Source of the DNA: Nakamurella antarctica | GTDB lineage: Bacteria; Actinomycetota; Actinomycetes; Mycobacteriales; Nakamurellaceae | Reading direction: 5' to 3' | Assembly: GCF_003860405.1 (NCBI RefSeq) | Contig: NZ_CP034170.1 | Span: 2,356,001 to 2,420,000, forward strand | Length of the DNA: 64,000 nucleotides | Shown here: positions 45,938-63,688 of the stretch, piece by piece | How the letters are laid out: each line of letters begins with the position of its first letter | How positions within the stretch are numbered: position 1 is the stretch's first letter | Notes under the pieces: generated by a model | The model's input: the letters and a program-made list of their open reading frames with translations, nothing else | Database searches by the model: none | What the model was told of the DNA's origin: nothing | Position numbers and translations under genes: made by a program

Positions 45938-46266
45938 TTCGACTCCCGATGGTCTTAGCGGTGTCGAAATTCCCATCCGACGGAGCTACCGTGTCCTAGG
46001 ACTCTAGCCCGCATCGATGAGGCCTCGGACGCCTCACGGGGCGCCAGTTGTAGACGAAGAACGTCAGCTGCGCACGCTGTGTATTTCCACCTCAATCCCA
46101 TTGCCCGCAATTGAAGCTTTAGCAGGTCAAAAGGGCAAGATCCGTTCCTTGCGGTTACCGGCTGCAACGAAAAAGGTGCGCGTTTGGTCCGCAGCACGTT
46201 AGCCGTCAGAGCATCACATGGCAGGTCGAGCCGAAAAGCTTCGCCGGCTCGCGACACCGCGCGATC
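45938..46266. other. 329-bp intergenic stretch before the SpoIID gene
   Basis: It separates two minus-strand genes. A short minus-strand frame crosses it, but its translation resembles no family and its codon use is poor. The SpoIID promoter must lie here; no clear boxes were identified. Confidence 0.45.
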
Positions 46267-47409: not shown

Positions 47410-49038
47410 TCACTGGCCTTCATCGGGCCCATGAGGCCAGAACGGATCGGTCGCTATATTCCGTCCCCAACGCTGCGTCAAGGTATCCAATTCGTAGTGG
47501 ACCACGCGTGGAACTCGTGTTTTGGACTCATAATGGAACAATTCGGCGTGCGGAGTCCAGATAATTCGGTAGCCAGCGTTAGTCACTTTGAGGCACAAGT
47601 CGACATCATTGAAATTGATCGGCAAGTTCAGATTCATCCCGCCCACGGCGAAATACGCGGCTCTGGGCATAAGCGCGCAGGCCCCGGTAACACCGGAAAC
47701 CTCGCGGTCTACCAACAGTCCAGCAAAGGGCCCGGTACTGCCGGCTCGATGACCGAGCGCGACATGCCCGGGTCCACCTCCCGAATACACGTGGCCGCCG
47801 TGTTGAATGGTTCCATCCTCGAAGTACAGCATCGGCCCCACCATGCCGACGTCCGGCTGCTGTGCAAGAGCCAGCATCACCTCGAGCCAATCTGGAGTAA
47901 TTACTTCGGTGTCGTCGTTGAGCATCAGGATGAAATCGCCTTGTGATTCGACGACTCCGCGGTTAATCTTCGCCGCAAAGTTGAACGGCGCGCTCCAAGG
48001 CACGAATCGCAGCTTGTCGCCGCCTGCCTGGGCTAGGTCGGCACGCACCTGCGCCGACATGGAGTCATCCGCCACCACCACGATTTCAAAGTTCTGATAG
48101 GTCGATTTTTCCACTACGCTCCGCACTGCATCAACTACGAGGCAACGGATTTGGCCCCCGACTTCGGCTGAACTGCCCCTGGTCGGGATGATGATGGATA
48201 CCAACGGGCTACCGATTACCGCGTATCTGATCCGGTACACCCCGACGGAATGAATTTGCTCCACCACGCCTTGCAGGCCGACGCGCTCGAGGTGCTCTTC
48301 CAGCGCACGCCGCGCCGCAGCAAACACTGGCGCGTTGTCGGAACGCTGGCTCACCGAGGCCGAATGTATGCGCCAGCGGTACCAGACCTGCGGGATATGA
48401 ACAACTCTGCGTGCAAGTTCGGTGGCCCGCAGGGCCAAGTCGTAGTCCTGAGATCCGTCGAAGCCCTCCCGGAATCCTCCGATCCGCATCAACAAGCTGC
48501 GGCGATACACCCCAAGATGGCCGATGTACATTTGGCCCCGAAGTCGTTCCGGAGAGAAATCTGGCTTATGAAAGCTGTTGCTGAGCAGCCCCTCTGAATC
48601 AACGTGGCCTTCGTCGGTGTAGAGCACGTCTGCATCGCCGTGCTGGGCTAGGGCATGCATCACCGCTCCCAACGCCCCGTCGACCAGTAAGTCGTCATGG
48701 TCCACTAGCGCAACGAATTCTCCGCGAGCCGCCGCCAGTGCGTCGTTGCTCGCGGCGACAATTCCACCATTCGTGCAACGCGTAATGATCTTGACTCGTG
48801 GGTCTCGGGCCATGTCGGCGAGGACAAGGCTTACTTCCTCGCTTTCCGAGCAATCGTCAACGCAGATCAACTCCCAGTCCATGAAATTCTGGATGAGGAT
48901 GGACTGGAGCATCTCTTCGAGAAAACGACGGTCAGGACGAAAGACTGGTACCAGGATGCTCAACTGCGGTTTCCAGTGGGGGCTTAACGCAGCGGCGAAG
49001 CGGCGTGGGTGAACTTCGGGCGACTTCCTCGAATTCAC
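47410..49038 (-). CDS. Tandem glycosyltransferase family 2 protein
   Basis: 542 residues from GTG 49038, which overlaps the stop of the upstream coiled-coil gene (GTGA). Two GT2 domains are visible. The first (about 22-235) has LSILVPVFRPDRRFLEEML, VDHDDLLVDGAL and DGSQDYDLALR. The second (about 270-515) has VSIIIPTRGSSAEV, VADDSMS, NFAAKINRGVVESQGDFILMLNDDTE and INFNDVDLCLKV. Two-domain enzymes of this kind often polymerise a repeat by alternate transfer, as WbdA-type O-antigen polymerases do. Together with the coiled-coil and the methyltransferase/ABC genes on the other side, it suggests one glycan assembly line. Confidence 0.9.
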   Translation of the reverse strand: MNSRKSPEVHPRRFAAALSPHWKPQLSILVPVFRPDRRFLEEMLQSILIQNFMDWELICVDDCSESEEVSLVLADMARDPRVKIITRCTNGGIVAASNDALAAARGEFVALVDHDDLLVDGALGAVMHALAQHGDADVLYTDEGHVDSEGLLSNSFHKPDFSPERLRGQMYIGHLGVYRRSLLMRIGGFREGFDGSQDYDLALRATELARRVVHIPQVWYRWRIHSASVSQRSDNAPVFAAARRALEEHLERVGLQGVVEQIHSVGVYRIRYAVIGSPLVSIIIPTRGSSAEVGGQIRCLVVDAVRSVVEKSTYQNFEIVVVADDSMSAQVRADLAQAGGDKLRFVPWSAPFNFAAKINRGVVESQGDFILMLNDDTEVITPDWLEVMLALAQQPDVGMVGPMLYFEDGTIQHGGHVYSGGGPGHVALGHRAGSTGPFAGLLVDREVSGVTGACALMPRAAYFAVGGMNLNLPINFNDVDLCLKVTNAGYRIIWTPHAELFHYESKTRVPRVVHYELDTLTQRWGRNIATDPFWPHGPDEGQ

Positions 49039-49382
49039 CGCGATCCACGACCTAGTGCCCGCTTCACAATGCGAGTGGCTGGCTGAATCCGGAGGCCCGC
49101 CCGCCACACCCGTGTGTTCCGCATCGCGGCGACCTCTGATTCGAGTCTGGCAACTTCTTGTCGCAGTCGCGCGTCTTCGAGTCGCGCTAAGTGCAGGTTC
49201 TCTCGATCGCTGTCCCAGTTGGCGTGCATTATCTGAAATTTGGCTTCATCGCGGACAGTCCACTCGGCCAGCTTTGCTTCCAGTCCAATTATTCGGTCCA
49301 CGAGATAAAGCTGGCGCTCGAGAGTCACCGAATCGGCGTTGAAGCCCGCTGCTGGCGTAGGCGGTGCTGAATTTTCGGCCAC
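49035..49382 (-). CDS. Small coiled-coil protein
   Basis: 115 residues from GTG 49382 with AGGGAG upstream. Residues ~18-85 form a heptad-rich helix (LERQLYLVDRIIGLEAKLAEW, then LEDARLRQEVARLESEVAAM). The end reads AAMRNTRVWRAGLRIQPATRIVKRAL, a basic amphipathic tail. No family was recognised. A similar tail ends the methyltransferase protein on the opposite strand (EAVRATKTFRLHHLV). It is translationally coupled to the tandem GT2, so it probably docks that enzyme to the membrane or to a partner. Its start faces the methyltransferase gene over 188 bp. Confidence 0.75.
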   Translation of the reverse strand: MAENSAPPTPAAGFNADSVTLERQLYLVDRIIGLEAKLAEWTVRDEAKFQIMHANWDSDRENLHLARLEDARLRQEVARLESEVAAMRNTRVWRAGLRIQPATRIVKRALGRGSR

Positions 49383-49570: not shown

Positions 49571-50656
49571 GTGATCTCGAAATACGATATTTCGGTGGAT
49601 TTGGGCAACGAAGGAACCTCACACAGGTTCATGGTCGAGCTTGTCGGATCAAATAAGTCAGTGTTGGACGTGGGCTGCGCAACGGGCTATCTCGCGCAGA
49701 CCCTCAACGCATTCGGCAACTGGGTCAGCGGCGTCGAGTACGACCCTGAAGCAGCCGAAACAGCCCGAGCACACATGAAGCGCGTGGTGGTGGCGGATCT
49801 AGACAACGCTGATTTGGCTGTCGCCATGGACGGCGAGAAATTTGACGTCGTCGTTTTCGGCGATGTTCTCGAGCATCTACGCGATCCGCTCCCCACGCTC
49901 CGACAAGCGCGGCAGCTTCTCAACCCTGACGGATACATCGTCATCTCTATTCCCAACGTGTCGCATGGCGACGTCCGAATGTCCCTGCTGCTGGGACGTT
50001 TTCAGTACCGCAACTTAGGACTGCTCGATACGACTCACCTACGCTTCTTTACCCGAGATACGTTGCAGGAGCTGCTCACCGATGCGGGTTTCATCGCTAC
50101 TGAGGTTCGGACCACCAAAGCAGGTCTTTTTACCACTGAACTCGGGGTGCGCGAGGATGAGATCGACCCAAGCGTTATAGAAGCCATCGCAAAGGATCAT
50201 GACGCCACCACCTACCAGTTTGTTTTGACCGCTGTCCCCGAGGGTGCGGCGGGGCTGGCCCAGAGAGCGGCGTGGCGCCTACAGGAATCCGAGAACCATA
50301 TCGCTGGCCTACATGAAAACGTGAACCAGATTGCCGCCGAACTCACCGCTACGGCCAGCGCCTTGGCCGACGCCGAGCACCGGGTCGCCGCCTGCGAAGG
50401 TGAGCGGAAAGCGCTGTCATCTCAGGTCGACACGCTATGGACACAACTCAACTCCACCCAAATGGAGCTGAGCCGGGTGCACAGCGAACGAGCAAGCGCT
50501 GCCGACCTCGCCCCTCCCGCCGATGGCCCGGCGACTCAGGACCTAGCAGCGGAACTAGCCGCCGCCACGAAGGAACTGGAGGCGGTGAGAGCGACTAAGA
50601 CCTTCCGGCTCCACCACCTTGTCACCGATATAATCCTGCCCCGTAGACGCCGGTGA
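49571..50656 (+). CDS. SAM-dependent methyltransferase with C-terminal coiled coil
   Basis: 361 residues from GTG 49571, with AAGGA eight bases upstream. Residues 1-220 are a class I methyltransferase: SAM loop VLDVGCATGY (31-40), the acidic strand end GVEYDPE, FDVVVFGDVLEHLRDPL and the later HLRFFTRDTLQELLTDAGF. Residues ~231-310 and 322-340 are predicted coiled coil, and the protein ends with the basic tail ATKTFRLHHLVTDIILPRRRR. It is the first gene of the operon that continues with the ABC exporter. The layout recalls WbdD of E. coli O9a, where a methyltransferase caps the polymer and a coiled coil measures its length. That parallel is inference; there is no kinase domain here. Confidence 0.87.
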   Translation: MISKYDISVDLGNEGTSHRFMVELVGSNKSVLDVGCATGYLAQTLNAFGNWVSGVEYDPEAAETARAHMKRVVVADLDNADLAVAMDGEKFDVVVFGDVLEHLRDPLPTLRQARQLLNPDGYIVISIPNVSHGDVRMSLLLGRFQYRNLGLLDTTHLRFFTRDTLQELLTDAGFIATEVRTTKAGLFTTELGVREDEIDPSVIEAIAKDHDATTYQFVLTAVPEGAAGLAQRAAWRLQESENHIAGLHENVNQIAAELTATASALADAEHRVAACEGERKALSSQVDTLWTQLNSTQMELSRVHSERASAADLAPPADGPATQDLAAELAAATKELEAVRATKTFRLHHLVTDIILPRRRR

Positions 50657-50787
50657 CCGGCAACAAGTGGGAAGATCTCCACTACTCGCCCAGACCTTGA
50701 TGTCTCACCGGACAACGACGCTAGGTCCAATTCGAGGGAGAAACCTGCGCGGTCGACTAACATGGTCATGATGTGCGAGGCGACTAT

Positions 50788-51621
50788 ATGAGCGTATTAG
50801 GTGACCTTCGGGGTTCCAGAGAGCTACTTTCCAATCTGACGATGCGGGAGGTGCGGGGCAAGTACAAGCGAAGCCTGCTCGGGCAGGGCTGGTCCCTTCT
50901 CAACCCGATTGCCACACTCTCTATTTACTCGCTGGTGTTCGGATTCGTGCTCCGGCAAAATCCCGCCCCCGGGGATCCAAGCGGCCTCAAGGTCTTTGCT
51001 CTCTGGTTAGCCTGTGCGCTCCTACCGTGGAACTTCTTCAACAACACGGTTCAAGGCGGAATGTCGGCGTTGGTGAGTAATGGCAACCTCCTCCAAAAGG
51101 TCTATTTCCCGAGGTACACACTAGTTGTCGCATCGATGTTGGCGAGCTTGGTCACGTTTGGCTTCGAACTCGTTGTCCTGTTGGTGGCCCTCGTTCTCTT
51201 CGGCGCTACCCCGTGGCTGTTCCTCCCCGGAGTTATCGTCGCTGTTGTTGTGATGGCATTTTTCGGCCTTGGTATCGCATTAATGCTTTCAATAGCTAAT
51301 GTTTACTTCAGGGACACCGCGCAGTTTGTGGGAATTTTCATGCAGATATGGTTTTATGCGACTCCCATTATCTATCCTGTGCACCTCATTCAAGATAAGC
51401 AAATCGAACTAAAAGCGCAGGGTAACAATATACCGTTGGAATTCATCTATCGCCTAAACCCGCTGGATAGATTCTCGACTATTTTCCGAAACCTCTTCTA
51501 CGATAATCGATGGCCAGCCTGGGATGACGCGCTCTATTGTTTCTGTGCAGCAGCTATATCGATGACGTTGGGAATCTGGGTCTTCACACGGTTCCAAGGA
51601 AAGATTGCAGAGGAACTGTGA
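50788..51621 (+). CDS. wzm: Polysaccharide ABC exporter, permease subunit
   Basis: 277 residues from ATG 50788 with GAGG upstream; GTG 50773 is an alternative. Six hydrophobic segments are visible, and the N-terminal cytoplasmic part (LTMREVRGKYKRSLLGQGWSLLNP) is the signature of the ABC-2 type Wzm/TagG/RfbA group. LNPLDRFSTIFRNLFYDN near the C-terminus is also typical. Two copies would form the channel for a lipid-linked polysaccharide. The stop overlaps the ATPase start. Confidence 0.93.
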   Translation: MSVLGDLRGSRELLSNLTMREVRGKYKRSLLGQGWSLLNPIATLSIYSLVFGFVLRQNPAPGDPSGLKVFALWLACALLPWNFFNNTVQGGMSALVSNGNLLQKVYFPRYTLVVASMLASLVTFGFELVVLLVALVLFGATPWLFLPGVIVAVVVMAFFGLGIALMLSIANVYFRDTAQFVGIFMQIWFYATPIIYPVHLIQDKQIELKAQGNNIPLEFIYRLNPLDRFSTIFRNLFYDNRWPAWDDALYCFCAAAISMTLGIWVFTRFQGKIAEEL

Positions 51622-52880
51622 GCTCATCAGCAGTTATCGTCAGTGATTTATCGAAGCGATTCAAGCTCTACCGTGAGAGAAACCAATCACTTAAAGCTGC
51701 CCTCATGCGCGGAAAACGTGCTTCTTTTGAAGAATTTTGGGCGTTGAAGGATGTCGACTTTGAGATCCCGGAAGGTTCGACCTTCGGTCTCATCGGGGAA
51801 AATGGCTCCGGCAAATCAACCTTGCTGAAGTGTGTCGCGCAGATCCTCATGCCCGATAAAGGTTCCGTGACGGTCAACGGTCGGATCGCAGCCCTTCTCG
51901 AACTTGGGTCTGGATTTCACCCCGAACTCTCAGGCCGCGAGAACGTCTATCTCAACGGTTCGATCTTGGGGCTCACCAAGAAAGAACTTGAGCGCAAGTT
52001 CGATGCCATCGTAGACTTTGCAGGCATTTCAGAGTTCATCGACCAGCCGGTAAAAAACTATTCTTCAGGAATGTATGTTCGACTCGGTTTCGCTATTGCC
52101 ATTAACGTCGACCCGGACATCTTGCTAGTCGATGAGGTTCTTGCAGTGGGTGATGCTGCCTTCCAAGAAAAATGCATGGATAAGTTCGCAGATTTTCGGC
52201 GCCAGGGTAAAACCGTCGTTATCGTGTCGCACGCAATGGGGTCTTTACGCTCCATGTGTGACCAGGCGATCTGGTTGGAACACGGCAAATTAGTGAAGGC
52301 AGGCAAAGCCAACGAAATCGTCGACGGCTACATGGATGCCTCGCACCAAGCGCGGGCCGAGATTGTGTTGCCAGACGCTCAACCGATTGCCCCTACCGAG
52401 GGCAGAAGCGGTTCCGGCGAGGCATTTATCAGTTTAGTAGAGACGCTGGCAGCCGACGGATCTCGTCGCGATCGCTTTCGAACGGGCGACCCGTTGACGT
52501 TGCGCCTCCACTACAACTGTGGCGTGCCCATCGAGCAGGCGGCCTTCGGGTACGCGCTTGAGAATGCCGATGGTGTGTATGTGTGGGCGCACAACACGAT
52601 CGACGCAGACCATCCGGTTGCCTCCTTGCAGGGCATTGGCAGCATTGATCTCATGATCCCCGCATTGCCACTCCAGCCTGGAACCTTCGACCTGACCGCA
52701 TCGATCGTGAACCAAAATTCGCACGTCTTTGACTTGGTGAGAAATTGTGTTCGCTTCCACGTCGATTTTGGCGATCCCCGCGAATCTGGGGGAATCGTCA
52801 CATTCAACGGAAGCTGGCAAGATCCGGTGACGCACCCGCTGCCGGCAGCAAATGCAGTCGCTGGGAGCTTGGATGTCTGA
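51618..52880 (+). CDS. wzt: Polysaccharide ABC exporter, ATPase with C-terminal Wzt-like sugar-binding domain
   Basis: 420 residues from GTG 51618 (GTGA overlap with the permease). The nucleotide domain has Walker A GENGSGKST (60-68), the family-specific LLELGSGFHPELSGRENVYL, signature SSGMY (149-153) and Walker B ILLVDE (168-173). From about residue 275 there is an extra ~145-residue beta-rich domain (GEAFISLVETLAADG, FRTGDPLTLRLHYNC, QPGTFDLTASIVNQN), matching the layout of Wzt_C, the domain that reads the capped end of O-antigens. Its presence implies that export waits for a terminal mark on the chain, most simply the one set by the methyltransferase two genes upstream. Confidence 0.93.
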   Translation: MSSSAVIVSDLSKRFKLYRERNQSLKAALMRGKRASFEEFWALKDVDFEIPEGSTFGLIGENGSGKSTLLKCVAQILMPDKGSVTVNGRIAALLELGSGFHPELSGRENVYLNGSILGLTKKELERKFDAIVDFAGISEFIDQPVKNYSSGMYVRLGFAIAINVDPDILLVDEVLAVGDAAFQEKCMDKFADFRRQGKTVVIVSHAMGSLRSMCDQAIWLEHGKLVKAGKANEIVDGYMDASHQARAEIVLPDAQPIAPTEGRSGSGEAFISLVETLAADGSRRDRFRTGDPLTLRLHYNCGVPIEQAAFGYALENADGVYVWAHNTIDADHPVASLQGIGSIDLMIPALPLQPGTFDLTASIVNQNSHVFDLVRNCVRFHVDFGDPRESGGIVTFNGSWQDPVTHPLPAANAVAGSLDV

Positions 52881-55371
52881 CGCCGTCACGCAAAATGCGC
52901 CACTCGTGTCCGTGGTGCTGTTGAACTTCCGAGGCGCTGATGACACGGTCGCTGCCATCGAAGCATTGCGGCTACTGAATTGGCCGACCCAATCGTTGGA
53001 AATCATATGCGTCGACAACGCCTCCGGCGACGACAGTGTCACGCGGATCCGCGCCGCGTTCCCCGATGTGCGATTGATCGAATCTAAGACAAATACCGGT
53101 TTCACCGGGGGGTGCAACCTCGGTGCTCGAGAAGCAACCGGGTCCTATGTGGCGTTTCTGAACAACGATGCCAAACCGCACGAGGATTGGCTTCGGACAG
53201 CCATCCCAGAGTTGGAAAATCATGCGGATGTCGGTGCCGTCGCATGCAAGGTGCTCAGCTGGGACGGAAGTGTCGTCGATTACGTGGGAGGTGATCTGAC
53301 TTGGTACGGAATGGGGTACAAGAAAGAGGTTAATCAGCCAGATGACGTCGGCTGGAACACAGGCAAGGACGTCCTGTTCGGGACTGGCGCGGCCTTGATT
53401 ACCCGACGCGACTTATTTCTCTCCACCGGTGGATTTGACGAGCGATTCTTCATGTTCTTCGAGGACGTGGATTATGGGTGGCGCCTTAACTTGCTCGGTT
53501 GGCGTGTGCGATATGTGCCGAGTTCGTTGGTCTTCCATCGTCACCATGCCTCAATGAAGTCCTTCGGTAACTATCACGAGGATTTTTTGCTCGACCGTAA
53601 TGCGCTGATGACCATTTACAAGAACTTCTCGGACGCCACGCTTGCTGCTGCCCTGCCAGGCGCTCTAGCGCTTACCGCGCGCCGAGCGGTGGTCCGCGGC
53701 GGCCTTGATTCCGAATCTTTGGACCTGCGACGCGCTGCCGAACACGTAGGTGAAGATGTCACCGTGCCAAAAACAGCGTTGGCCGGTTTGTTCGCAGTAG
53801 ATTCCTTCGTCGAAAACTTGGCAGATCTGACTAGGACCCGAGTGGAACTGCAAAGCAGCCGAAAGCGCTCCGATGCAGATCTCATGCGCCTTTTCGGTGA
53901 CTCGATGCGTTCCATGCAGAGTGACGCCCGAACACTCCAGGGATATCAATCCATCGTGGAAGCCTTCGGCGTGGCAGACCATCTGCAGCAACGTCGCCGC
54001 ATCCTCATCGTCACTGGCGACAGGTTGAGTAAGCAGATGGCGGGCCCGGCTATTCGTGCGTGGCATATTGCGACACTCCTCGGCGCCGAACACGATGTTC
54101 GCCTGGTCAGCACCAGCTTCGTTGACGTGGTGTCGCCGATCTTTGATGTTGACTTGGCCCCCGTGCACAACACCCGGTCGATGGACAAGCACGTGCAGTG
54201 GGCTGACATCATCATGTTCCAGGGCTATGCGCTTTCCCAGTACTCAGCTTTGCAAAAAACAGACAAGATCATGATCTGCGACCTTTACGATCCGATGCAC
54301 CTGGAACAACTGGAGCAAGCTCGTGAGCTTGCTCCAGAGCAGTGGCGCAATGTGGTGTCGTCGGCGACAGATGTTCTTAATATGCAGCTTCGCCGCGGTG
54401 ACTTTTTCCTCTGCGCTTCCGACCGCCAACGGCATTTTTGGCTCGGCCAACTTGCCGCTGTGGGGAGAATCAATCCCGACAATTACGCGGTCGACGAAAG
54501 CCTGGATCAGCTGATAGACATTGCGCCGTTCGGCCTCACTACGGAAGCACCAGTACAAACACGGCATGCGCTCAAAGGGACCTTTGACGGCATCAATGCG
54601 GACGACAAGGTCGTCATCTGGGGTGGCGGCGTCTACAACTGGTTTGACCCGCAGACTTTGGTGAAGGCCGTCGGCGAGCTCGCCGAGCGGAGGGGGAACA
54701 TCCGGTTGGTTTTCCTGGGGATGAAGCATCCGAACCCGCATGTCCCGCAAATGCGGGCTGCGAACGAAGCTCGTGCGCTCGCGGACTCCCTGGGTCTGAC
54801 CGGCAAGAATGTCTTCTTCAACGAAATCTGGGTTGACTACGACGATCGCCATAACTATCTGCTGGATTCCGATGCGGGCGTCACCACACACTTCGACCAC
54901 GTGGAGACGACGTTCTCGTTTCGAACCCGGATCTTGGACTACTTGTGGGCTGGGCTGCCCATCGTCACGACAGGCGGCGACAGTTTCGGCGAGTTGGTCC
55001 GGGAAAAGGGCCTGGGAATCGCAGTCAGCGCGGAGAACGTCACCGAGCTAGCCGAGGCCCTCGAGATCGTGCTGTACGACGAAGAATTCGCCAAGCGCGT
55101 CAAGGACAATATTTCCTCCCTCCGGGACCAATATACTTGGGAACATGCCCTGACTCCGTTGTTGGAGTTCTGCCGAGATCCTCGGCCCGCACCTGATCGG
55201 ATATCTGGGGCGGCATTGGCTTGGCCTACTTCCAAACAACACTACAAACCCAATCTTTCTACCGATTTGGCTTTGTTGAAGATGTACCTGAAGGCCGGCG
55301 GTGTAAGAGAACTAGCCACTCGAATCGTGGGGCGGCTCAAGCGAACTTCCCTCAAACTCCTGAGTCGCTAA
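52873..55371 (+). CDS. GT2-GT4 fusion glycosyltransferase
   Basis: 832 residues from ATG 52873, overlapping the ATPase gene by 8 bp. Residues ~10-290 are a GT2 domain (VSVVLLNFRGADDTVAAIEA, VDNASGDDS, NTGFTGGCNLGAREATGSYV, LNNDA, FFMFFEDVDYGWRL). A helical linker follows (about 290-375), and residues ~380-780 are a GT4-like GT-B domain (ILIVTGDRLSKQMAGPAIR, VIWGGGVYNWFDPQTLVKA, FSFRTRILDYLWAGLPIVTTGGDS). The GT4 part lacks the common EGFGLPxLE and has a longer variant, as in other fusions located beside Wzm/Wzt genes. It probably makes two successive linkages in the exported polymer. Confidence 0.9.
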   Translation: MSDAVTQNAPLVSVVLLNFRGADDTVAAIEALRLLNWPTQSLEIICVDNASGDDSVTRIRAAFPDVRLIESKTNTGFTGGCNLGAREATGSYVAFLNNDAKPHEDWLRTAIPELENHADVGAVACKVLSWDGSVVDYVGGDLTWYGMGYKKEVNQPDDVGWNTGKDVLFGTGAALITRRDLFLSTGGFDERFFMFFEDVDYGWRLNLLGWRVRYVPSSLVFHRHHASMKSFGNYHEDFLLDRNALMTIYKNFSDATLAAALPGALALTARRAVVRGGLDSESLDLRRAAEHVGEDVTVPKTALAGLFAVDSFVENLADLTRTRVELQSSRKRSDADLMRLFGDSMRSMQSDARTLQGYQSIVEAFGVADHLQQRRRILIVTGDRLSKQMAGPAIRAWHIATLLGAEHDVRLVSTSFVDVVSPIFDVDLAPVHNTRSMDKHVQWADIIMFQGYALSQYSALQKTDKIMICDLYDPMHLEQLEQARELAPEQWRNVVSSATDVLNMQLRRGDFFLCASDRQRHFWLGQLAAVGRINPDNYAVDESLDQLIDIAPFGLTTEAPVQTRHALKGTFDGINADDKVVIWGGGVYNWFDPQTLVKAVGELAERRGNIRLVFLGMKHPNPHVPQMRAANEARALADSLGLTGKNVFFNEIWVDYDDRHNYLLDSDAGVTTHFDHVETTFSFRTRILDYLWAGLPIVTTGGDSFGELVREKGLGIAVSAENVTELAEALEIVLYDEEFAKRVKDNISSLRDQYTWEHALTPLLEFCRDPRPAPDRISGAALAWPTSKQHYKPNLSTDLALLKMYLKAGGVRELATRIVGRLKRTSLKLLSR

Positions 55372-55416: not shown

Positions 55417-55515
55417 TTAATTGCTGCCTCGGGTGATGCGTCCTTCGAAGGCGATGAGTGCTGGTTTCCATCTCATTGCCCATCGCGGGCTGCCTTTGCC
55501 GGTTGGGTCCAGTGA
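55417..55515 (-). pseudogene. IS256-family transposase C-terminal fragment
   Basis: About 32 codons ending at a stop read SLDPTGKGSPRWAMRWKPAL followed by an altered tail, the C-terminus of an IS256 transposase. It differs from the matching end of the copy at 56.5 kb (SLDPTGRGRTRWTMRWKPA), so it is a separate element. Nothing else of it remains. Confidence 0.7.
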
Positions 55516-55539
55516 TCCGTTTGCCGGCTCTTCAGACTC

Positions 55540-56430
55540 AGTGGGACTTAGCGGTTCTGGTTGGCTCCCGGCGTGATGCTCGGGTGCAAGCGAATCGTAT
55601 TCTCCTTTTGTGGTTTTCGGTGTTTCTGAACCCGAATGCGACACAGCCGACCATGGAGCCGTCGCTGTGGGGCGTAGCCGTGATGGAGTTGACGATGCGG
55701 TTGTAGCCTTCGGTTTTGCCGTTGCTGATTCCGGTGTTGATGCCGGCGATGATTGATGGTTGCCAGATGGTGATGGTCCACGCCAAGCGGCCCAGTTGCG
55801 GAATGTCGGCGTCGGCGCAGTGCTGGTAGAAGTCGATAAGCCGGTTCCAGACCTGGGATCGGTCTGGGTTAGTGCCAGCCAGGGACAGCAACGAGCGGGG
55901 CTTTTCCTTTCACTTGCCAGCACTTTTCCAACCCACCGGTGGTGTCAGCGCCGCGGATTGCGGTGAGCATCTTGGCCATCTCATCCTCGGTGAGGTTCTC
56001 CGCGGCCCGCAGCAGCCGGTTGCGTTTACCCCACTCAGGATCAGTTTTTCGGCCCCTTCGGCCGCGCCTAGTCCAGGCCAACTATCGCCGGTATTGAAGT
56101 GACTGCCCGGTTGGCGAGCATCACCAGGCGAAAACCGGTCCACGACCACCACGGCGTTCGCTAACGCGATCCTCGCTGCTCTTGCATAGGCGGTGGATGG
56201 GTCCATCCAGACGTGGGTGATTCCAGCCGACCAGGCTCACGTCTTGGGCTTGCAACCGGGTGATCACCACCTCGGAGTTCCGGCCGTTCACCTGCGCGAA
56301 CAGTCCACCGTTACCGCCCAAGTCGACCAGGTCGGTGTCGAATCGGTCCACCCACGTTCTGGCCCCGGTATCGGGGTCTGTTTCGTATTTGCCTTTCCCG
56401 CGACGGGTATCGTGAGCCCCAACACCGTCA
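55540..56430 (-). pseudogene. ISL3-family transposase, heavily decayed
   Basis: Pieces in several frames line up in the correct order with ISL3 transposases. Around 56.20-56.43 kb: KGKYETDPDTGARTWVDRFD, then DLVDLGGNGGLFAQVNGRNS. Near 56.15 kb: ANAVVVVDRFSPGDARQPGS. At 55.87-56.08 kb: LRAAENLTEDEMAKMLTAIR. At 55.54-55.89 kb: GKTEGYNRIVNSITATPHSD and FGFRNTENHKRRIRF. At least three frameshifts separate these. It is a different lineage from the intact-ended ISL3 at 32.4 kb. The N-terminal zinc-finger region is missing. Confidence 0.75.
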
Positions 56431-56461
56431 CAGGTGGTGGCGCATCGGGGGGACTATCTCG

Positions 56462-57842
56462 TTAACGGTGTTTCCAGCATTTTTGGTTAGTAGGTTTCTG
56501 CTGTCGGCCAGCGGTCGGCGAAAGTGATCGCGAATGCGCCCCGCGCTGGCTTCCACCTCATTGTCCATCGGGTGCGGCCACGACCCGTGGGATCGAGACT
56601 ACGAGTGACAAGGTACAGGCACTTCAACGCCGCTTGCTCAGTCGGGAAATGACCCCTAGCTCGGACCGCTCGCCGGTACCTCGCGTTGAGTGATTCGATG
56701 GCATTTCTTGAGCAGATCACGGTCCGGATCTCCAGGTCGTAATCCAAGAACGGAATGAATTCTTCCCACGCCGATTCCCAGAGCCGGATGATCGCACCGG
56801 ACTTCTTCCCCCATTTCTCGGTGAGGTCCTCCAACGCTGCGCCGGCGGCGTTGTGGTTCGGGGCGGTGTAGATCGGTTTCACATCGCGTTTGAGCGCATC
56901 CCAGTCCTTCTTCGACGCCAGCCAAAAGGTATTGCGAACCAGGAGAGATGATCCACGTTCGCACCGTGGTGAGCGGCCACACATTGCCCACCAAGTCAGG
57001 CAGTCCCTTCAAACCGTCGCAGATGAGGAAGAGAACGTCCCGAACCCCACGGTTCTTAATGTCGGTTAAGACGCTCATCCGCAAGCTTCGCGCCTTCACC
57101 GCCGGTTCCGACCCACAGCCCGAGGACGTCTTTCTCCCCGGCCAGGGTGAAGCCGATAGCTGCGTAAACGGGCCGGTTCGCGACCTGACCATCACGGATC
57201 TTCACCACAATCGCATCAATGAAAATCGCCGCGTAAACCCCGTCCAGCGGCCGGGCCGACCATTCGTGCATTTCCTCGATGACTTTGTCGGTGATCCTTG
57301 AGATCGTCTCCTTTGACACCGACGCCCCGTAGATCTGGGCGAAGTGTGCGCTGATCTCACCCGTCGTGAGGCGAGTTGGCATACAAAGACAGCGCAATCT
57401 CCTCAACCCCATTGAGCGGCGTTGACGTTTCGCCCGCGGTCTGCGGCTCGAACGAACCATCCCGATCCCTTGGGACCTCGATCGTGACCTGACCGGTCGC
57501 TTCAGTGAGCACCGTCTTCGCTCTCGTGCCGCCCGCGGACATTCCCAGGCCCGCGATCCGGGTTGGCGCGGTTCTTCTCATGCCCAAGGTGCTCAGCGAG
57601 CTCCTCATTCAGCGCGGCCTCGAACACGTTCTTCGTTAACAGCTTCAACAGCCCATCAGTGCCTGTCAGGGACAAGCCTCGTTCTTTCGCCATCGGAACC
57701 AACTCGGCCGCCGCAGCAGCCTCGGCGGATCGGTCATCATTCTGGTTTTTTTTAGGACTCACAGCATCAAGTGTCGTTGTCATCACGGCACCTTTCCCGC
57801 CACGCATCCTGCGCAGCGCGTCAGGTGCGGAAACACCGTTAA
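56462..57842 (-). mobile_element. IS256-family element, degenerate
   Basis: TTAACGGTGTTTCC (56462-56475) and its exact complement GGAAACACCGTTAA (57829-57842) bound the element, about 1.38 kb, and enclose a frameshifted IS256 transposase. No matching target duplication flanks it, which fits an old insertion or one next to other IS debris. Confidence 0.75.
56487..57807 (-). pseudogene. IS256-family mutator transposase with several frameshifts
   Basis: The N-terminus (from about 57783: MTTTLDAVSPKKNQNDDRSA, TDGLLKLLTKNVFEAALNEE) is read in one frame. Then LTEATGQVTIEVPRDRDGSF in a second, and ISAHFAQIYGASVSKETISR with DGVYAAIFIDAIVVKIRDGQ (first catalytic Asp) in a third. NRGVRDVLFLICDGLKGLPD (second Asp) and NAIESLNARYRRAVRARGHF (with the Glu) complete the DDE core. 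Four or more frame breaks, near 57.55, 57.38, 57.08 and 56.95 kb, inactivate it, yet amino-acid identity to the family remains high, so decay is recent in terms of substitutions. Confidence 0.85.
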
Positions 57843-57927: not shown

Positions 57928-59502
57928 CTAATTCACCACCACTTGTTGGCAGCCTAACTCCTTGTTTCCCGAAGCAGCTTGGGTACTAATGGCGTATAAA
58001 CAGACGGTGTTCGCACCGCGACCACTGCTGGGAATGCTGAACCCAAATCCGTGATTGTTGCCGGTTCCATATGCCGCTCCGACATCACCGCGAGGGCCGT
58101 TTGCGTAATTTCCTGGATAACCAATTACCCCGGCAGGGCCAGAGACGTATGCATGAATCTCAACTGTGGCGGAGGGGTTCAACGCGTCAAATACCCAACC
58201 CTGCACCGATATCTGACTGCCGGCCGCACGAGCAGAATCAACCACGCCAGTCAAGTATCGAATCACGATCGTCTTGCAACCCAACGACTGATTACTCCCT
58301 GCGCTCGCCGAAATTACGTACGCACAGAGATTATGGTTTCCCTCCGCCGTAATCGAAAGGGCCTGCCTGAAACCATGATTGGAACCGGTGCCAGGGTATA
58401 CTGCCCCAACATCAGATCTGGACTGAGACGCTTGCAGCTGGTAGCCAACAGTCCCAGTAGGCCCCGTGTCGTACACGTGCACTTGTGTTGAAGTGGTGGG
58501 CGCTCCCGGATCAATGCTCCAACCTGAAACGCTGACTGAGCCCGGACTTATAACTGCAGTATCAAAGGAACCAAAGGGTTGACCCACCTCCACCGCGCGG
58601 CAACCGACCTGAACGTTCCCGCCAGGGCCCTGGTTAATCACATAGGCGCAAATATTGTGCTTACCTGTTCCCGAAATTGGGATGGTCAATCCGTACCCAC
58701 GATTTGGGCCGCTGGCTGGATACGCGGCCCAAACGTCTGCCCGCGGAATATTGGCAACGGTCTGATAACCAACGGAACCGCCGGACGGCAGAAAATCATA
58801 GATATGCACTGCGGCTGAACTGGATAGGGCGTCCGGATCCCAGCCCCACCCCTGGACGTAAACCGTGCTGCCCGACTTCTGCACTACGTCGACAACGCCG
58901 ACAGGGTTCCCATTCGGTACTGGGGCCGGCGGAGCGACCACCTGCCCAGGCTCAACCTGGTCCGTGAAGGTCATCGTGTTCCAACTCGCACCGTTCGAGC
59001 CGGTGACAGATCCCATTCCGACAAATCGGAATGACGCGCCAAGAATGTTGGCTTTGTGCCCTGGCGACGCCCAGTACGAGTCAAAAATTGATTGGGCGGT
59101 GACCGAGGCCGGCGACCACTTCGCCACGTTCTCACCCCATGACGTACGGTTCGACGCTCCATAGCTGGTGACCTGCTGGAATGCATTCGGGTTGTGCTGA
59201 AGCTGATTGCCGGTAGCCCCGTCTGCCATCTGGCTCGACCACCACACGGACAGATTCGTGAGTCCCGTTGCTTCCTGAACTTGTGGCAGACCAGCCGCGG
59301 AACGCTTGACGTTGATCATGCTGATCAACTCCTGATCGAAGGCGGTTAGCTGTGGGCCAGCAGCCAAAGCCATGGGTGCCGATGCGACGGCGGGCACTAG
59401 CATCGCGCACACCAGCACGAGGCACGCCAAGAGGCGGTTGGCTTTCGCTCGCCCGCCTGTGGCAACCGGAGAAACACGTCCGGCAGTGAGTGTCTGAAGC
59501 AT
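57928..59502 (-). CDS. Secreted CAP-domain (SCP/PR1-like) protein with three wall-type repeat domains
   Basis: 524 residues from ATG 59502, with AAAGG upstream; the reading from 59787 adds a non-secretory tail. A signal peptide (about 20-47, ending MALAAG) precedes a CAP domain, about 52-180 (FDQELISMINVKRSAAGLPQ, TSWGENVAKW, YWASPGHKANILGASFRFVG, with the His/Glu cluster of the CAP cavity). Three ~105-residue domains follow, each with the pattern VQGWGWDPDAL, HIYDFLP or HVYDTGP, DVGAVYPGTGSNHGF, and a cysteine pair (ICAYVI..VGC). The same domain forms the C-terminal half of the SpoIID protein at 43-46 kb. Bacterial CAP proteins have few known activities; wall or polysaccharide binding is inferred. 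Confidence 0.87.
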   Translation of the reverse strand: MLQTLTAGRVSPVATGGRAKANRLLACLVLVCAMLVPAVASAPMALAAGPQLTAFDQELISMINVKRSAAGLPQVQEATGLTNLSVWWSSQMADGATGNQLQHNPNAFQQVTSYGASNRTSWGENVAKWSPASVTAQSIFDSYWASPGHKANILGASFRFVGMGSVTGSNGASWNTMTFTDQVEPGQVVAPPAPVPNGNPVGVVDVVQKSGSTVYVQGWGWDPDALSSSAAVHIYDFLPSGGSVGYQTVANIPRADVWAAYPASGPNRGYGLTIPISGTGKHNICAYVINQGPGGNVQVGCRAVEVGQPFGSFDTAVISPGSVSVSGWSIDPGAPTTSTQVHVYDTGPTGTVGYQLQASQSRSDVGAVYPGTGSNHGFRQALSITAEGNHNLCAYVISASAGSNQSLGCKTIVIRYLTGVVDSARAAGSQISVQGWVFDALNPSATVEIHAYVSGPAGVIGYPGNYANGPRGDVGAAYGTGNNHGFGFSIPSSGRGANTVCLYAISTQAASGNKELGCQQVVVN

Positions 59503-60082
59503 GTGTGGCCTTTCACGCAGGGATGCAAACGGACGCAGGATTTCGACGTCAGGTCTACTACTCCTAGTAACAATACCGTTGCCTAGCGTCACAAGGGGAT
59601 TTGATTTCGCCTGGTAACTAAGTCGACGTTTCGGTGAGCAAATGACGAAACCGTCGTTCCCAGAGGCCAGATTAACTACTCTGAGTAGCAAAACGTCACG
59701 CTCTGCACAGTTGCGTGTGAGAATGCTGCAAGCCGTGACACGCAACCCGACGTCAGCTTCTGAGAAAGTGCTCGGCTCTCCAAGCATTCAGGCGCGTGAA
59801 ACACCTATTGGAGGGATTCATGGCTCTCTTGACACGACAGCCCGTGAGGTGGGCAAAAACTATCCCGGTAGATTCACCCGGGAATCGTTAGATTCCACTC
59901 TTTCGAGGAAATTACCGATCTCGATTCGTGCGCAAAAGGGCAAATCGCCCATTTGGGGACTGCGGGGGCAACACCAGCCACCCAGAATGCAGGGAGGGCT
60001 CGACTTCCCCGTCAGGTGGGGAGAAAATCACCGGGCTCCCAATGTCGACGGTGCAAGAACAAAAATGATCTCCTGCCCCTCG
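59503..60082. promoter_or_regulatory. 580-bp region upstream of the CAP gene, with a repeated palindromic motif
   Basis: No supported gene lies here; a plus-strand frame across 59642-60130 has no family resemblance. ACTACTCCTAGTA (59557-59569) and ACTACTCTGAGTA (59675-59687) match at 11 of 13 bases and are each partly self-complementary. They lie 118 bp apart in the CAP leader. A possible rmlD terminator is at its right end. I looked for a c-di-AMP riboswitch, common before wall-remodelling genes, and did not see one. Confidence 0.5.
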
Positions 60083-61234: not shown

Positions 61235-63688
61235 ATGAGCGACCGCGAGACCCCGGACAACCGCGGGCCGCGTCGGTATGGTCCGCGGGCCGACGACGCC
61301 GGTCGTTACGGTGAGACTCCACGCGGGAACGATCCGCGCGTAAACGACCCCCGCACGGATGGCACCCGCAAAGGGCAGCCACCGGTATTGCCACACCGTC
61401 CCCAAGCTGCCAGCGAGTCGCACCCAGATTCTGCCTACCCACTTTCACGCGGCTCAGGTCAACGGGACCAGGGACAACGGGACCAGGGACAACGGGACCG
61501 GGGACAACGCGACCGAGACCCGCGCGACCAAACATTACGCGACCAAACACCACGCGGCCCAGCCCCGCGCGAGGTGCCTCGACTGCCGGCGTCATCCCCA
61601 TCGCCGAACTTTGATCAGCGCTTTCGGGATCAGCGCCCACAAGGCCGTCCACCCGCCTGGCAAGACCAGCGCCCACAACCGGTAAGCCGATCCGGTGAAC
61701 GACGCACCACCGATGGATCCGAGGCCAGCTCCCCCCTGCGCAGGCAGCCAAGTGCACAGGGCCAAAACCCCCAGCGCCCGAACCCGCAGGGTCAAAACCC
61801 CCAGCGACCGCACCCGCAAAACCCCCAGCGCCCGAACCTCCAAAACCACAACCCGCAAAACCCCCAGGGCCAAAACCCCCAGCGCCCACTCCCGGCGAAC
61901 CAGAATCCGCAGCGCGACGATCCGTATCGTCGCGCGTGGTCGGAAGCCGATCAGCAGCCGCAGCGCCCGAATGTCCACAGTCAGTACCCCGAGACCAGAG
62001 TGTTCGCCGTGCCTCCGCGTGAATCCGCGGGGCCGCTCGGCCCCACGGGCCGCGGTCCCGGCGGTCCCCCGGTGCAAGGTCCCCCGGGTCGGGGCCCAGG
62101 CGGCCCAGGCGGCCCAGGCGGACCGGGCGGACCGCCAGGACCTGGGGGGCCACCGTCAGGCGGTCGTCGCAAGCGGGCATCTGGTCCGCTGAAAGCGGGC
62201 CGCATAGTGATGGCTTTGATCTCCGCCGCCGTCCTGGTGGTGAGTGGATTCGGCACTGTGGTCGCCGCCACCGCTGGCCAACAAGAGGCGGGCCTCACCA
62301 ACCCGTGCGATGCCGCCGGCGCATGCCCCGGTCAGACGATTCTGCTGGTGGGTTCCGATGCCCGCGTCGACGCTCAGGGAAATCCGCTCAGCGCCGAAGC
62401 GCTCAAGCAAGTAGCCACAGAGGCAGACGGTGGCGGCACGAGCACCGACACCATGATGCTGATCCACATTCCCGAGGGCGGGGGCAAGGCAACAGCCGTG
62501 TCGATCCCGAGGGATGTGTGGATAGCGAATCCACCGCCCGGACCTTCCGACTCTGATGCGTCCGCACTGGTGAAGTACGACGCCAACAAGGTCAACTCGT
62601 ACTACGGCAGTGCCAAGTTTTTCACCCAGGTTCGACTTGTCGCCGAAGGCGTTACTGATCAACCCACTGTTGAGCGTGAGTCCAACAATGCGGGCCGGAA
62701 GATGCTAATTAGCGTTCTGGAGAACTTCACCGGAATCCACATCGATAACTACGCCGAAGTCAACCTCTACGGGTTTTACCTACTGTCCAATGCTCTTGGT
62801 GGCGTGCCGGTCTGTTTGGTCAACGCGGTCAACGACCCGTTCTCCGGTGCCGTTTTTCCCGCTGGACCGCAGGAAGTTCAAGGTACTGCTGCACTTTCGT
62901 TCGTTCGTCAGCGTCACGGCTTGCCCAATGGCGACCTCGATCGCGTCAAACGTCAGCAGGCTTTCCTTTCCGGGGCCATCTCCAAAGTTCTGTCTGTCGG
63001 GACTGTTACCAAGATTCCCGAGTTGCTCAGCGCGGCTGACAAATCAATTGTGCTGAGTGAGGGCTTCAGCCTTTTGCAGTTGGCGAATCAAATGCAGTCG
63101 ATGTCCACCGGCAATATTATTTTCGCTACTTTGCCCACCCACGGCAGCGAATCCTCCACTGAGAAGGACGCACTCGCTGTCGACGTGCCTGAGGTACAAG
63201 CACTTTTTGCTTCGATCAAGAATGAGACGGCCTCGACCCAGGGACCCGCCGCTCAGAGCGATCCCGCGGCACCCACTCAGACCCTTGACCCGGTGTCGAT
63301 CATCGTTGATGTGCAAAATGGAACCATCACATCAGGGATGGCGAAGGCGGTGTCTGACGAGGTTGCCGCAGCCAAGTACACCCGGGGCCAGATCTCAGAC
63401 TTCCCCGGTGTCTCCGAGGGCAACGAGCAGTCCAGCACCACGATTCGGTTTTCGCCGGGTGGTGAGGCAGCAGCTGCCGGAGTGAAAGCCGCTCTCGGAT
63501 ACGGCGAGTTGCAGCCGGATTCCAGCGTGGACGCAGGTCACGTTCTCGTGGTCGTTGGCACTGACCGATCAGCGAAACCAAGCGGGCTCCGCAACAGCGC
63601 CCCGTTCGTTTCCGCACCCCCTGCTTCCTTGTACGCAGCCCCCGGTGACGGCTCCATCACCGCAGCCCAACCGGGCTGCGTCAACTAA
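61235..63688 (+). CDS. LytR-CpsA-Psr (LCP) family glycan ligase with LytR_C domain
   Basis: 817 residues. AAGGAAGG precedes ATG 61235. The first ~310 residues are cytoplasmic and disordered, rich in Pro, Gln, Asn, Arg and Gly with tandem motifs (RDQ/RGQ, NPQRPNPQG, GGPGGP). One transmembrane helix follows (about 322-345). The LCP domain runs from about 365 to 565 (ILLVGSDARVD, AVSIPRDVWIANP, FVRQRHGLPNGDLDRVKRQQ with the conserved Arg/Asp set). A LytR_C domain lies at about 686-779. LCP enzymes move lipid-linked polymer onto peptidoglycan; the M. tuberculosis homologue in this position, Rv3267, attaches arabinogalactan. It is divergent from rmlD across about 260 bp. Confidence 0.93.
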   Translation: MSDRETPDNRGPRRYGPRADDAGRYGETPRGNDPRVNDPRTDGTRKGQPPVLPHRPQAASESHPDSAYPLSRGSGQRDQGQRDQGQRDRGQRDRDPRDQTLRDQTPRGPAPREVPRLPASSPSPNFDQRFRDQRPQGRPPAWQDQRPQPVSRSGERRTTDGSEASSPLRRQPSAQGQNPQRPNPQGQNPQRPHPQNPQRPNLQNHNPQNPQGQNPQRPLPANQNPQRDDPYRRAWSEADQQPQRPNVHSQYPETRVFAVPPRESAGPLGPTGRGPGGPPVQGPPGRGPGGPGGPGGPGGPPGPGGPPSGGRRKRASGPLKAGRIVMALISAAVLVVSGFGTVVAATAGQQEAGLTNPCDAAGACPGQTILLVGSDARVDAQGNPLSAEALKQVATEADGGGTSTDTMMLIHIPEGGGKATAVSIPRDVWIANPPPGPSDSDASALVKYDANKVNSYYGSAKFFTQVRLVAEGVTDQPTVERESNNAGRKMLISVLENFTGIHIDNYAEVNLYGFYLLSNALGGVPVCLVNAVNDPFSGAVFPAGPQEVQGTAALSFVRQRHGLPNGDLDRVKRQQAFLSGAISKVLSVGTVTKIPELLSAADKSIVLSEGFSLLQLANQMQSMSTGNIIFATLPTHGSESSTEKDALAVDVPEVQALFASIKNETASTQGPAAQSDPAAPTQTLDPVSIIVDVQNGTITSGMAKAVSDEVAAAKYTRGQISDFPGVSEGNEQSSTTIRFSPGGEAAAAGVKAALGYGELQPDSSVDAGHVLVVVGTDRSAKPSGLRNSAPFVSAPPASLYAAPGDGSITAAQPGCVN
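63661..63680 (+). other. Perfect hairpin inside the 3' end of the LCP gene
   Basis: CGCAGCCC (63661-63668) and GGGCTGCG (63673-63680) form an 8-bp stem with a 4-base loop just before the stop codon. There is no T-run, so it may only stabilise the mRNA end. Confidence 0.5.

What the first reader, a model, noticed from the sequence alone, without database searches (positions are those of the whole stretch)
49571..55371. Candidate WbdD-Wzm-Wzt-like chain-termination and export unit in an actinobacterium
Four overlapping or closely spaced genes encode a methyltransferase with a ~110-residue C-terminal coiled coil, an ABC-2 permease, an ATPase with an extra C-terminal domain of Wzt_C layout, and a GT2-GT4 fusion. 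In E. coli O9a/O8, WbdD caps the chain by methylation, its coiled coil measures chain length, and Wzt_C reads the cap. The same parts in one operon here suggest a methyl-capped, length-controlled wall glycan. What is new is the combination with WbbL/LCP-type wall attachment. No kinase domain is present, so any cap differs from O9a.
Basis: partly seen in the sequence, partly recalled or inferred. Interest (0 to 1): 0.75.

Follow-up and report, generated by a model that had tools for sequence, protein, structure and literature searches.

The report
Methyl-capped wall-glycan exporter in an actinobacterium
Near genes that probably link sugar chains to the cell wall, this bacterium carries a methyltransferase on a long coiled-coil arm and a sugar-chain exporter with a sensor domain, parts that in other bacteria decide when a chain is finished and let only finished chains out.

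Summary

Best reading: a terminator, ruler and exporter that works like E. coli O8 WbdD-Wzm-Wzt, for a wall glycan. Methylation, cap position and length control are inferred. Two of seven Aquifex cap contacts are kept, so the cap probably differs.

Beyond the finding: at 63 Wzt_C loci of the order, 22 have one of three methyltransferase types, 19 of them with coil and basic tail; 0 of 20 galactan-exporter loci do. The type follows the Wzt clade. New variant of a known kind.

The parts
49571..50656 (+). Methyltransferase with C-terminal coil: MT domain to about residue 223; helix 226-313 (about 50246-50509); helix 321-340; basic C-terminal helix 343-360
50773..51621 (+). Wzm, ABC-2 permease (GTG start; an ATG lies at 50788); this protein finds no second match in the genome at E 0.001
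   Evidence: Pfam ABC2_membrane; own-genome search
51618..52880 (+). Wzt, ATPase with C-terminal carbohydrate-binding domain (Pfam match at residues 262-394, about 52401-52799)
52852..55371 (+). GT2-GT4 fusion, candidate chain polymerase
   Evidence: Pfam Glycos_transf_2 and Glycos_transf_1; long relatives at 49-54% identity next to Wzt in L037, L038, L040, L041 and L043
60083..61024 (-). RmlD, dTDP-rhamnose synthesis; also near the unit in L038, L040 and L041, and near the MT in L049
   Evidence: TIGR01214 above cut-off
61235..63688 (+). LCP-family glycopolymer transferase, candidate wall ligase for this glycan
   Evidence: TIGR00350 above cut-off; LCP within 8 kb of 11 of 23 MT loci
47410..49107 (-). 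GT2-GT2 protein, transcribed away from the unit; candidate second chain-building enzyme
   Evidence: two Glycos_transf_2 stretches; relatives in L037, L038, L042 and L043
49038..49382 (-). Small 115-aa coil protein with a basic tail, overlapping the start of the GT2-GT2 gene
   Evidence: similar small genes in L037, L169 and L173

Best explanation
The four genes form a termination and export unit for a lipid-linked wall glycan. Glycosyltransferases, including the GT2-GT4 fusion, extend the chain at the inner face of the membrane (inferred). The methyltransferase is held at the membrane or polymerase by its basic C-terminal helix, and its coil, about 13 nm if straight, keeps the catalytic head away from the membrane, so only chains of a minimum length reach it (inferred from WbdD). 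It adds a methyl group to the non-reducing end and stops growth (inferred). The C-terminal domain of Wzt reads that end (domain and predicted fold shown, binding inferred) and Wzm-Wzt exports the finished chain; an LCP enzyme, probably the one encoded at 61235-63688, then links it to peptidoglycan (inferred from adjacency). It works like E. coli O8 WbdD-Wzm-Wzt and the Geobacillus WsaE system, but serves the wall and probably reads a different cap.
For: Wzt_C by sequence and predicted fold, the nine best rows being Wzt entries. MT, 88-residue helix and basic tail; last 26 residues at +3 or more in 53 of 56 (55 stand-alone relatives and the window), mean +5.9, against -1.1 per 26 residues in the coil. 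Order MT-Wzm-Wzt-GT in L037, L038, L040 and L041; variants in L042 and L043. Of 11 loci with MT at 340 bits or more, 9 have Wzt within 4 kb, and 5 of 5 where both flanks reach 4 kb (L055 and L056 there are the contigs of L038 and L040). All 11 genomes of the order with MT at 200 bits or more have Wzt_C, against 75 of 298 in all (P 1.4e-7; cut-off chosen after seeing the list, genomes not independent). The MT family is fused to GT2 domains next to Wzm-Wzt in L117, L118 and L084. Genes with coil and basic tail are commoner at Wzt_C loci than at galactan-exporter loci (28 of 63 against 3 of 20 loci, p 0.019), and methyltransferase type follows the Wzt clade (12 changes against 21.2 in shuffles). 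LCP within 8 kb in 11 of 23 loci.
Against: No activity, substrate or glycan is shown. Of seven Aquifex side-chain contact sites, N313 and T346 are identical in the window, A348 is Ser, and L300, H350, W362 and Y233 are Ala, Val, Leu and Met; W362L essentially abolishes LPS binding by the Aquifex CBD (PMC9445017). The window's tail is basic but not amphipathic by the moment test (p 0.915), and it lacks the SWRxTxPLR tail motif seen in the other MT types (0 of 7 of the window's type have it). Of 47 loci with full flanks, 30 have no Wzt within 4 kb, so the wider MT family is not tied to Wzt. 41 of 63 Wzt_C loci show none of the three MT types at my thresholds. The NBD tree separates MT types almost as well as the CBD tree (14 changes against 12), so inheritance of whole cassettes explains the coupling as well as direct recognition does. 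Sequence kinship with WbdD itself is weak.
Confidence: 0.7

Rival explanations
1. The methyltransferase decorates residues along the chain or a side branch instead of the terminus; the coil only docks it to the polymerase, and the CBD reads an unmethylated terminal sugar or a cap made by another enzyme.
For: The methyl-stacking Trp of the Aquifex pocket is Leu here. Close Wzt_C relatives such as L167 and L177 have no MT of the tested types within 7 kb.
Against: Methyltransferase type follows the Wzt clade, and in characterised systems the coil is a mark of terminators (PMC11231755, passages). L177 is G086, where the MT lies about 10.5 kb from Wzt_C, so absence within 7 kb is not absence from the genome.
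Confidence: 0.15
2. The methyltransferase acts on a nucleotide sugar or other small molecule, and the methylated sugar is then built into the chain.
For: By fold the MT domain is closest to generic class I enzymes, many of them small-molecule methyltransferases, and above all to an uncharacterised one, 3CC8.
Against: A small-molecule enzyme needs no long coil with a basic tail. Relatives are fused to glycosyltransferases beside Wzm-Wzt, the layout of WsaE, whose MT domain methylates a rhamnan end (PMC2943079, passages).
Confidence: 0.07
3. The unit exports a secreted or protein-linked polysaccharide, not a wall glycan; the LCP gene nearby serves another polymer.
For: The LCP gene is 5.9 kb away, across what look by eye like transposase fragments; the genome has three LCP genes; 12 of 23 loci have no LCP within 8 kb (several contigs end early).
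Against: LCP lies within 8 kb in 11 of 23 loci; no second Wzm was found in the genome; Wzt_C and the galactan Wzt largely exclude each other in the order.
Confidence: 0.15

Closest known systems
E. coli O8 WbdD with Wzm-Wzt
   Same: Kinase-free methyltransferase terminator, Wzm, and Wzt with a CBD (O8 WbdD as a simple methyltransferase: PMC3482155, passages; coil ruler of WbdD proteins: PMC11231755, passages)
   Different: The MT sequence is not recognisably WbdD (about 31 bits over profile positions 26-104, among many unrelated MTs; O9a-type WbdD structures only); LCP gene nearby instead of an O-antigen ligase; GT2-GT4 fusion as candidate polymerase
Geobacillus stearothermophilus WsaE with Wzm-Wzt (S-layer glycan, 2-O-methyl-rhamnose cap)
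   Same: Gram-positive; N-terminal methyltransferase in the terminator; overlapping wzm-wzt-wsaE genes; predicted cap reading by Wzt (PMC2943079, passages)
   Different: [quoted passage not shown] the product goes to a protein. Kinship with WsaE itself was not tested; L117 and L118 share the layout
Aquifex aeolicus WzmWzt with 3-O-methyl-mannose/rhamnose cap
   Different: Two of seven contact side chains kept; Gram-negative O antigen
Klebsiella pneumoniae O7 ORF6 (methyltransferase, kinase, coil, two GT2)
   Same: Methyltransferase head and coil ruler in an ABC-exported, rhamnose-containing glycan system (PMC11231755, passages)
   Different: Carries a kinase and fused GT modules; caps with methyl phosphate
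Mycobacterial galactan exporter Wzm-Wzt (RfbD/RfbE)
   Same: ABC exporter for a lipid-linked glycan that is attached to peptidoglycan (PMC10951656, passages); its Wzt family is found in 47 of 150 genomes of the window's order
   Different: The solved Wzt chains are about 260 aa and match only the ATPase part; none of the three MT types at 20 such loci; window Wzt 186 bits against a cut-off of 400, Wzm 76 against 380

Membership tests
Wzt with carbohydrate-binding domain | ABC ATPase domain followed by a Wzt_C domain | tested here: met
   Pfam ABC_tran 9.5e-22 and Wzt_C 1.6e-18, over cut-off; 8dku aligned over both domains
Wzt with carbohydrate-binding domain | Beta-sandwich CBD fold | tested here: met
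   [not shown]
Wzt with carbohydrate-binding domain | Pocket that reads a modified non-reducing end | tested here: inconclusive
   N313 and T346 kept, A348 to Ser, L300, H350, W362 and Y233 changed; H355 and V380 not placed
WbdD-type chain terminator | Methyltransferase (or methyltransferase-kinase) catalytic head | tested here: met
   Methyltransf_23; class I fold; no kinase family matched, as expected for the O8 type
WbdD-type chain terminator | C-terminal coiled-coil ruler | tested here: met
   Helices 226-313 and 321-340; heptad test. Only a single chain was modelled; oligomeric state and ruler function not tested
WbdD-type chain terminator | Membrane-associated amphipathic C-terminal helix that recruits the polymerase | tested here: inconclusive
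   Basic terminal helix present (+5), but no amphipathic moment above shuffles in the window protein (p 0.915); recruitment not testable
WbdD-type chain terminator | Sequence kinship with WbdD | tested here: not met
   Profile A2 finds solved WbdD only at about 31 bits over positions 26-104, among many unrelated methyltransferases
WbdD-type chain terminator | Methylates the glycan terminus and is required for export and length control | not testable with these tools
   No biochemical data
Mycobacterial galactan exporter (NF050108/NF050109) | Score over the curated cut-offs | tested here: not met
   186.4 against 400 and 75.8 against 380
Teichoic-acid exporter TagH (NF010066) | Score over the curated cut-off | tested here: not met
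   201.6 against 320
LCP-attached wall glycan systems | LCP ligase gene near the export genes | tested here: met
   61235-63688, 5.9 kb away; within 8 kb in 11 of 23 related loci
LCP-attached wall glycan systems | Glycan covalently linked to peptidoglycan | not testable with these tools
   Needs wall chemistry

The most novel reading that the evidence does not exclude
Many actinobacteria of this order that lack the galactan exporter use a cap-gated exporter for their main wall glycan, and its terminator is a swappable module: three different methyltransferase families (Methyltransf_23, FkbM, Methyltransf_24) are mounted on a coil with a basic tail, each matched to its own Wzt CBD type with its own pocket signature. 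Swaps have happened even within the genus of this window. The chemical cap would then be readable from the Wzt sequence.
Probability: 0.4. Interest if true: 0.72.

Novelty: new variant of a known kind. Interest (0 to 1): 0.58.

Why it matters
Cap-and-ruler control of glycan length is worked out for O antigens and proposed for an S-layer glycan. If it also governs a peptidoglycan-linked wall polymer, it gives a concrete answer to how some actinobacteria set wall-glycan length and export only finished chains. For mycobacterial galactan the size regulator is still a hypothesis (PMC10951656, passages: contact between GlfT2 and the exporter is proposed). The three matched methyltransferase/CBD types offer natural test pairs for what a Wzt CBD recognises.

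Tried and rejected
Rejected: membership in the galactan exporter and TagH families (cut-offs); arabinogalactan as the product, because Emb (PF04602) gave no match in the genome and UDP-galactopyranose mutase only a 20.5-bit match far below its cut-off. Considered and dropped: a frameshift between the small coil ORF 49038-49382 and the GT2-GT2 gene; L037, L169 and L173 have a similar separate small gene. Led nowhere: the first scan of genome contigs with the single MT protein found no relative; a repeat motif of SpoIID and CAP proteins, 7 of 63 Wzt_C loci against 0 of 20, p 0.19; a tail-motif test, 11 of 63 against 0 of 20 loci, p 0.058 (one motif hit is the ORF 56490-56984 of the window, which looks like a transposase fragment). 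The S. mutans wall polysaccharide paper (PMC11754754, passages) had no occurrence of Wzt, coiled, chain length or terminat in the main text and gave no precedent. WbdD is not among the 50 rows of the MT fold search, which does not exclude it. Direct MT-CBD coupling could not be separated from inheritance of whole cassettes.

Caveats on my own tests: the FkbM and Methyltransf_24 profiles were built from three proteins each, found at Wzt_C loci, so '0 of 20' at galactan loci leans towards my reading; the head-free count does not have this bias. Labels used thresholds of mine (window type 200 bits, weaker type 90-200, FkbM 250, Methyltransf_24 100); loci below them count as 'none', among them L171, which has another coil-tailed Methyltransf_23-family protein, and L187 with an FkbM match of 179 bits. 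The 63 Wzt_C loci are 63 of the 67 places at 56 bits or more (not fetched: G166, G095, G098, G139); L039 had no Wzt in reach and was dropped. The 20 galactan loci were my pick from 50 places over cut-off. Coil and tail scores use home-made rules.
Full report
Observation. ORF and Pfam results confirm the four genes. The methyltransferase (49571-50656) starts with GTG behind AAGGA. Wzm (50773-51621) follows after 116 bp, Wzt (51618-52880) overlaps Wzm by 4 bp, and the GT2-GT4 fusion (52852 or 52873 to 55371) overlaps Wzt. This packing, read from the sequence, suggests one transcript.

Pocket. The Aquifex paper names the contacts (PMC9445017, sections 9, 12 and 14 read). By the alignments, N313 and T346 are identical in the window (N326, T360), A348 is Ser362, and L300, H350, W362 and Y233 become Ala313, Val364, Leu373 and Met239. 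At the Trp position 8 of 12 near relatives (L054-L059 as far as listed, L061-L063, L065, L072, L090) have Phe or Tyr, the others Val, Ala, His and Leu; L068 and L084 of cyanobacteria have Trp. The pocket is of the right kind but not the Aquifex pocket, so the cap cannot be named.

Does it belong to glycans? In L037, L038, L040 and L041 the order MT-Wzm-Wzt-GT fusion is the same; L042 and L043 are variants. The second genome scan kept the best 80 of 384 loci. Wzt lies within 4 kb in 9 of 11 loci with MT at 340 bits or more, 5 of 12 at 300-340, 7 of 37 at 250-300 and 9 of 20 below. So the close family is tied to Wzt and the wider family only partly: 17 of 47 loci with 4 kb on both sides. Named carriers with Wzt beside the MT include Cellulomonas species, Actinotalea and MAGs labelled Frankiales, Pseudonocardiales and Acidothermaceae. 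In Bacillota and a cyanobacterium, members are fused to GT2 domains next to Wzm-Wzt (L117, L118, L084), the layout of WsaE, whose MT domain is held to make the 2-O-methyl-rhamnose cap of the Geobacillus S-layer glycan (PMC2943079, passages). In the order of the window, all 11 genomes with MT at 200 bits or more have a Wzt_C, against 75 of 298 in all (P 1.4e-7). The cut-off was chosen after seeing the list: just below it G013 (179 bits) has no Wzt_C, G125 (160) has one, G113 (143) has none, and G077 (140) has one.

Place in the envelope. In this genome the searches found one Wzm, one Wzt_C, three LCP genes, no Emb and no UDP-galactopyranose mutase above cut-off. None of the 17 genomes of its genus has the galactan-type Wzt at E 1e-60. 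Among the 150 genomes (taken to be handles G000-G149), 47 have the galactan Wzt and 56 have Wzt_C over their cut-offs, with two in common (G068, whose Wzt_C match is weak, and G092; p 1.4e-9; genomes not independent). An LCP gene lies within 8 kb in 11 of 23 loci with MT at 300 bits or more. This supports, without proving, a wall glycan exported by this unit in place of galactan.

Other terminators. At 63 Wzt_C loci of the order (63 of 67 places at 56 bits or more), 7 have the window's MT type, 2 a weaker Methyltransf_23 type, 6 an FkbM type and 7 a Methyltransf_24 type (Pfam for some, own profiles for the rest). Of these 22, 19 have a coil score of 0.6 or more and +3 or more in the last 30 residues (not L042, L195, L210). 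The tail motif SW(R/K)xTxPLR is in 11: 6 of 6 FkbM, 3 of 7 Methyltransf_24, 2 of 2 weaker Methyltransf_23, 0 of 7 of the window's type. None of the three types was found at 20 galactan-Wzt loci (22 of 63 against 0 of 20, p 0.001, biased as told under Tried and rejected). A head-free count of genes with coil and basic tail gives 28 of 63 against 3 of 20 loci (p 0.019). On a tree of the CBD alone the labels need 12 changes against 21.2 in shuffles (0 of 200 as low): Methyltransf_24 is one group of 7 (support 83), the 6 FkbM rows lie in a group of 10 (94), and the 7 window-type rows in a group of 20 (99). Taken alone the window type is not clustered beyond chance (6 changes, 107 of 500 shuffles as low). 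The NBD tree needs 14 changes against 21.0, so cassette inheritance explains the pattern nearly as well. Pocket segments differ by type. Within the window's own genus, G000 and G006 have the window type, G005, G007 and G010 the FkbM type, and nine others with Wzt_C none of the three at my thresholds.

Mechanism. By analogy with O8/O9a (PMC3482155 and PMC11231755, passages): the polymerase extends, the coil sets a minimum length, the methyltransferase caps, the CBD reads the cap, Wzm-Wzt exports, LCP attaches. Shown: genes, domains, predicted folds, recurrence of the unit, and coupling of MT type to Wzt type. Inferred: every catalytic and binding step, the length control, and the product. A helix of 88 residues is about 13 nm at 1.5 Angstrom per residue (own arithmetic).

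Novelty. Cap-gated export is known, and is proposed in one Gram-positive. Searches of the open-access library for Wzt, CBD, methyl caps and coil terminators in Gram-positives or actinobacteria (listings seen, some capped) listed no paper that I recognised as describing such a unit for an actinobacterial wall glycan; most subscription papers are not in that library. I file it as a new variant of a known kind.

Noticed in passing
49038-49382 (-): A 115-aa coil protein with a basic tail overlaps the start of the GT2-GT2 gene; similar small genes occur in L037, L169 and L173, so it looks like a conserved separate gene.
   Followed up: partly
55417-57460 (-): Short ORFs that look by eye like broken transposase pieces, two of them with like C-terminal stretches, lie between the GT fusion and rmlD/LCP; no library was asked about them.
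   Followed up: no
43346-45976 (-) and 57928-59787 (-): A SpoIID-type protein and a CAP/YkwD-type protein share C-terminal repeats ending in VCxYxINxGxG...LGCxxVxV; in the SpoIID protein Pfam matches only the SpoIID domain. Such repeats also lie near 6 further Wzt_C loci and near none of 20 galactan loci (7 of 63 against 0 of 20, p 0.19). They might bind the wall glycan.
   Followed up: partly
Order-wide, handles G000-G149: The galactan-type Wzt and the Wzt_C type rarely occur together (2 genomes in common of 47 and 56 among 150), also within family f16, as if one wall-glycan exporter replaces the other.
   Followed up: partly
L181:9065-12652, L182:2062-5655: A protein of nearly 1,200 aa near Wzt_C in L181 has an N-terminal methyltransferase match, GT2, GT4 and a basic tail, another possible fused terminator-polymerase; L182 has one of like length and tail.
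   Followed up: no
40242-42203 (+): A protein with DUF7657 and DUF7654 lies in the same sugar cluster; a relative is near the unit in L042. Function unknown.
   Followed up: no
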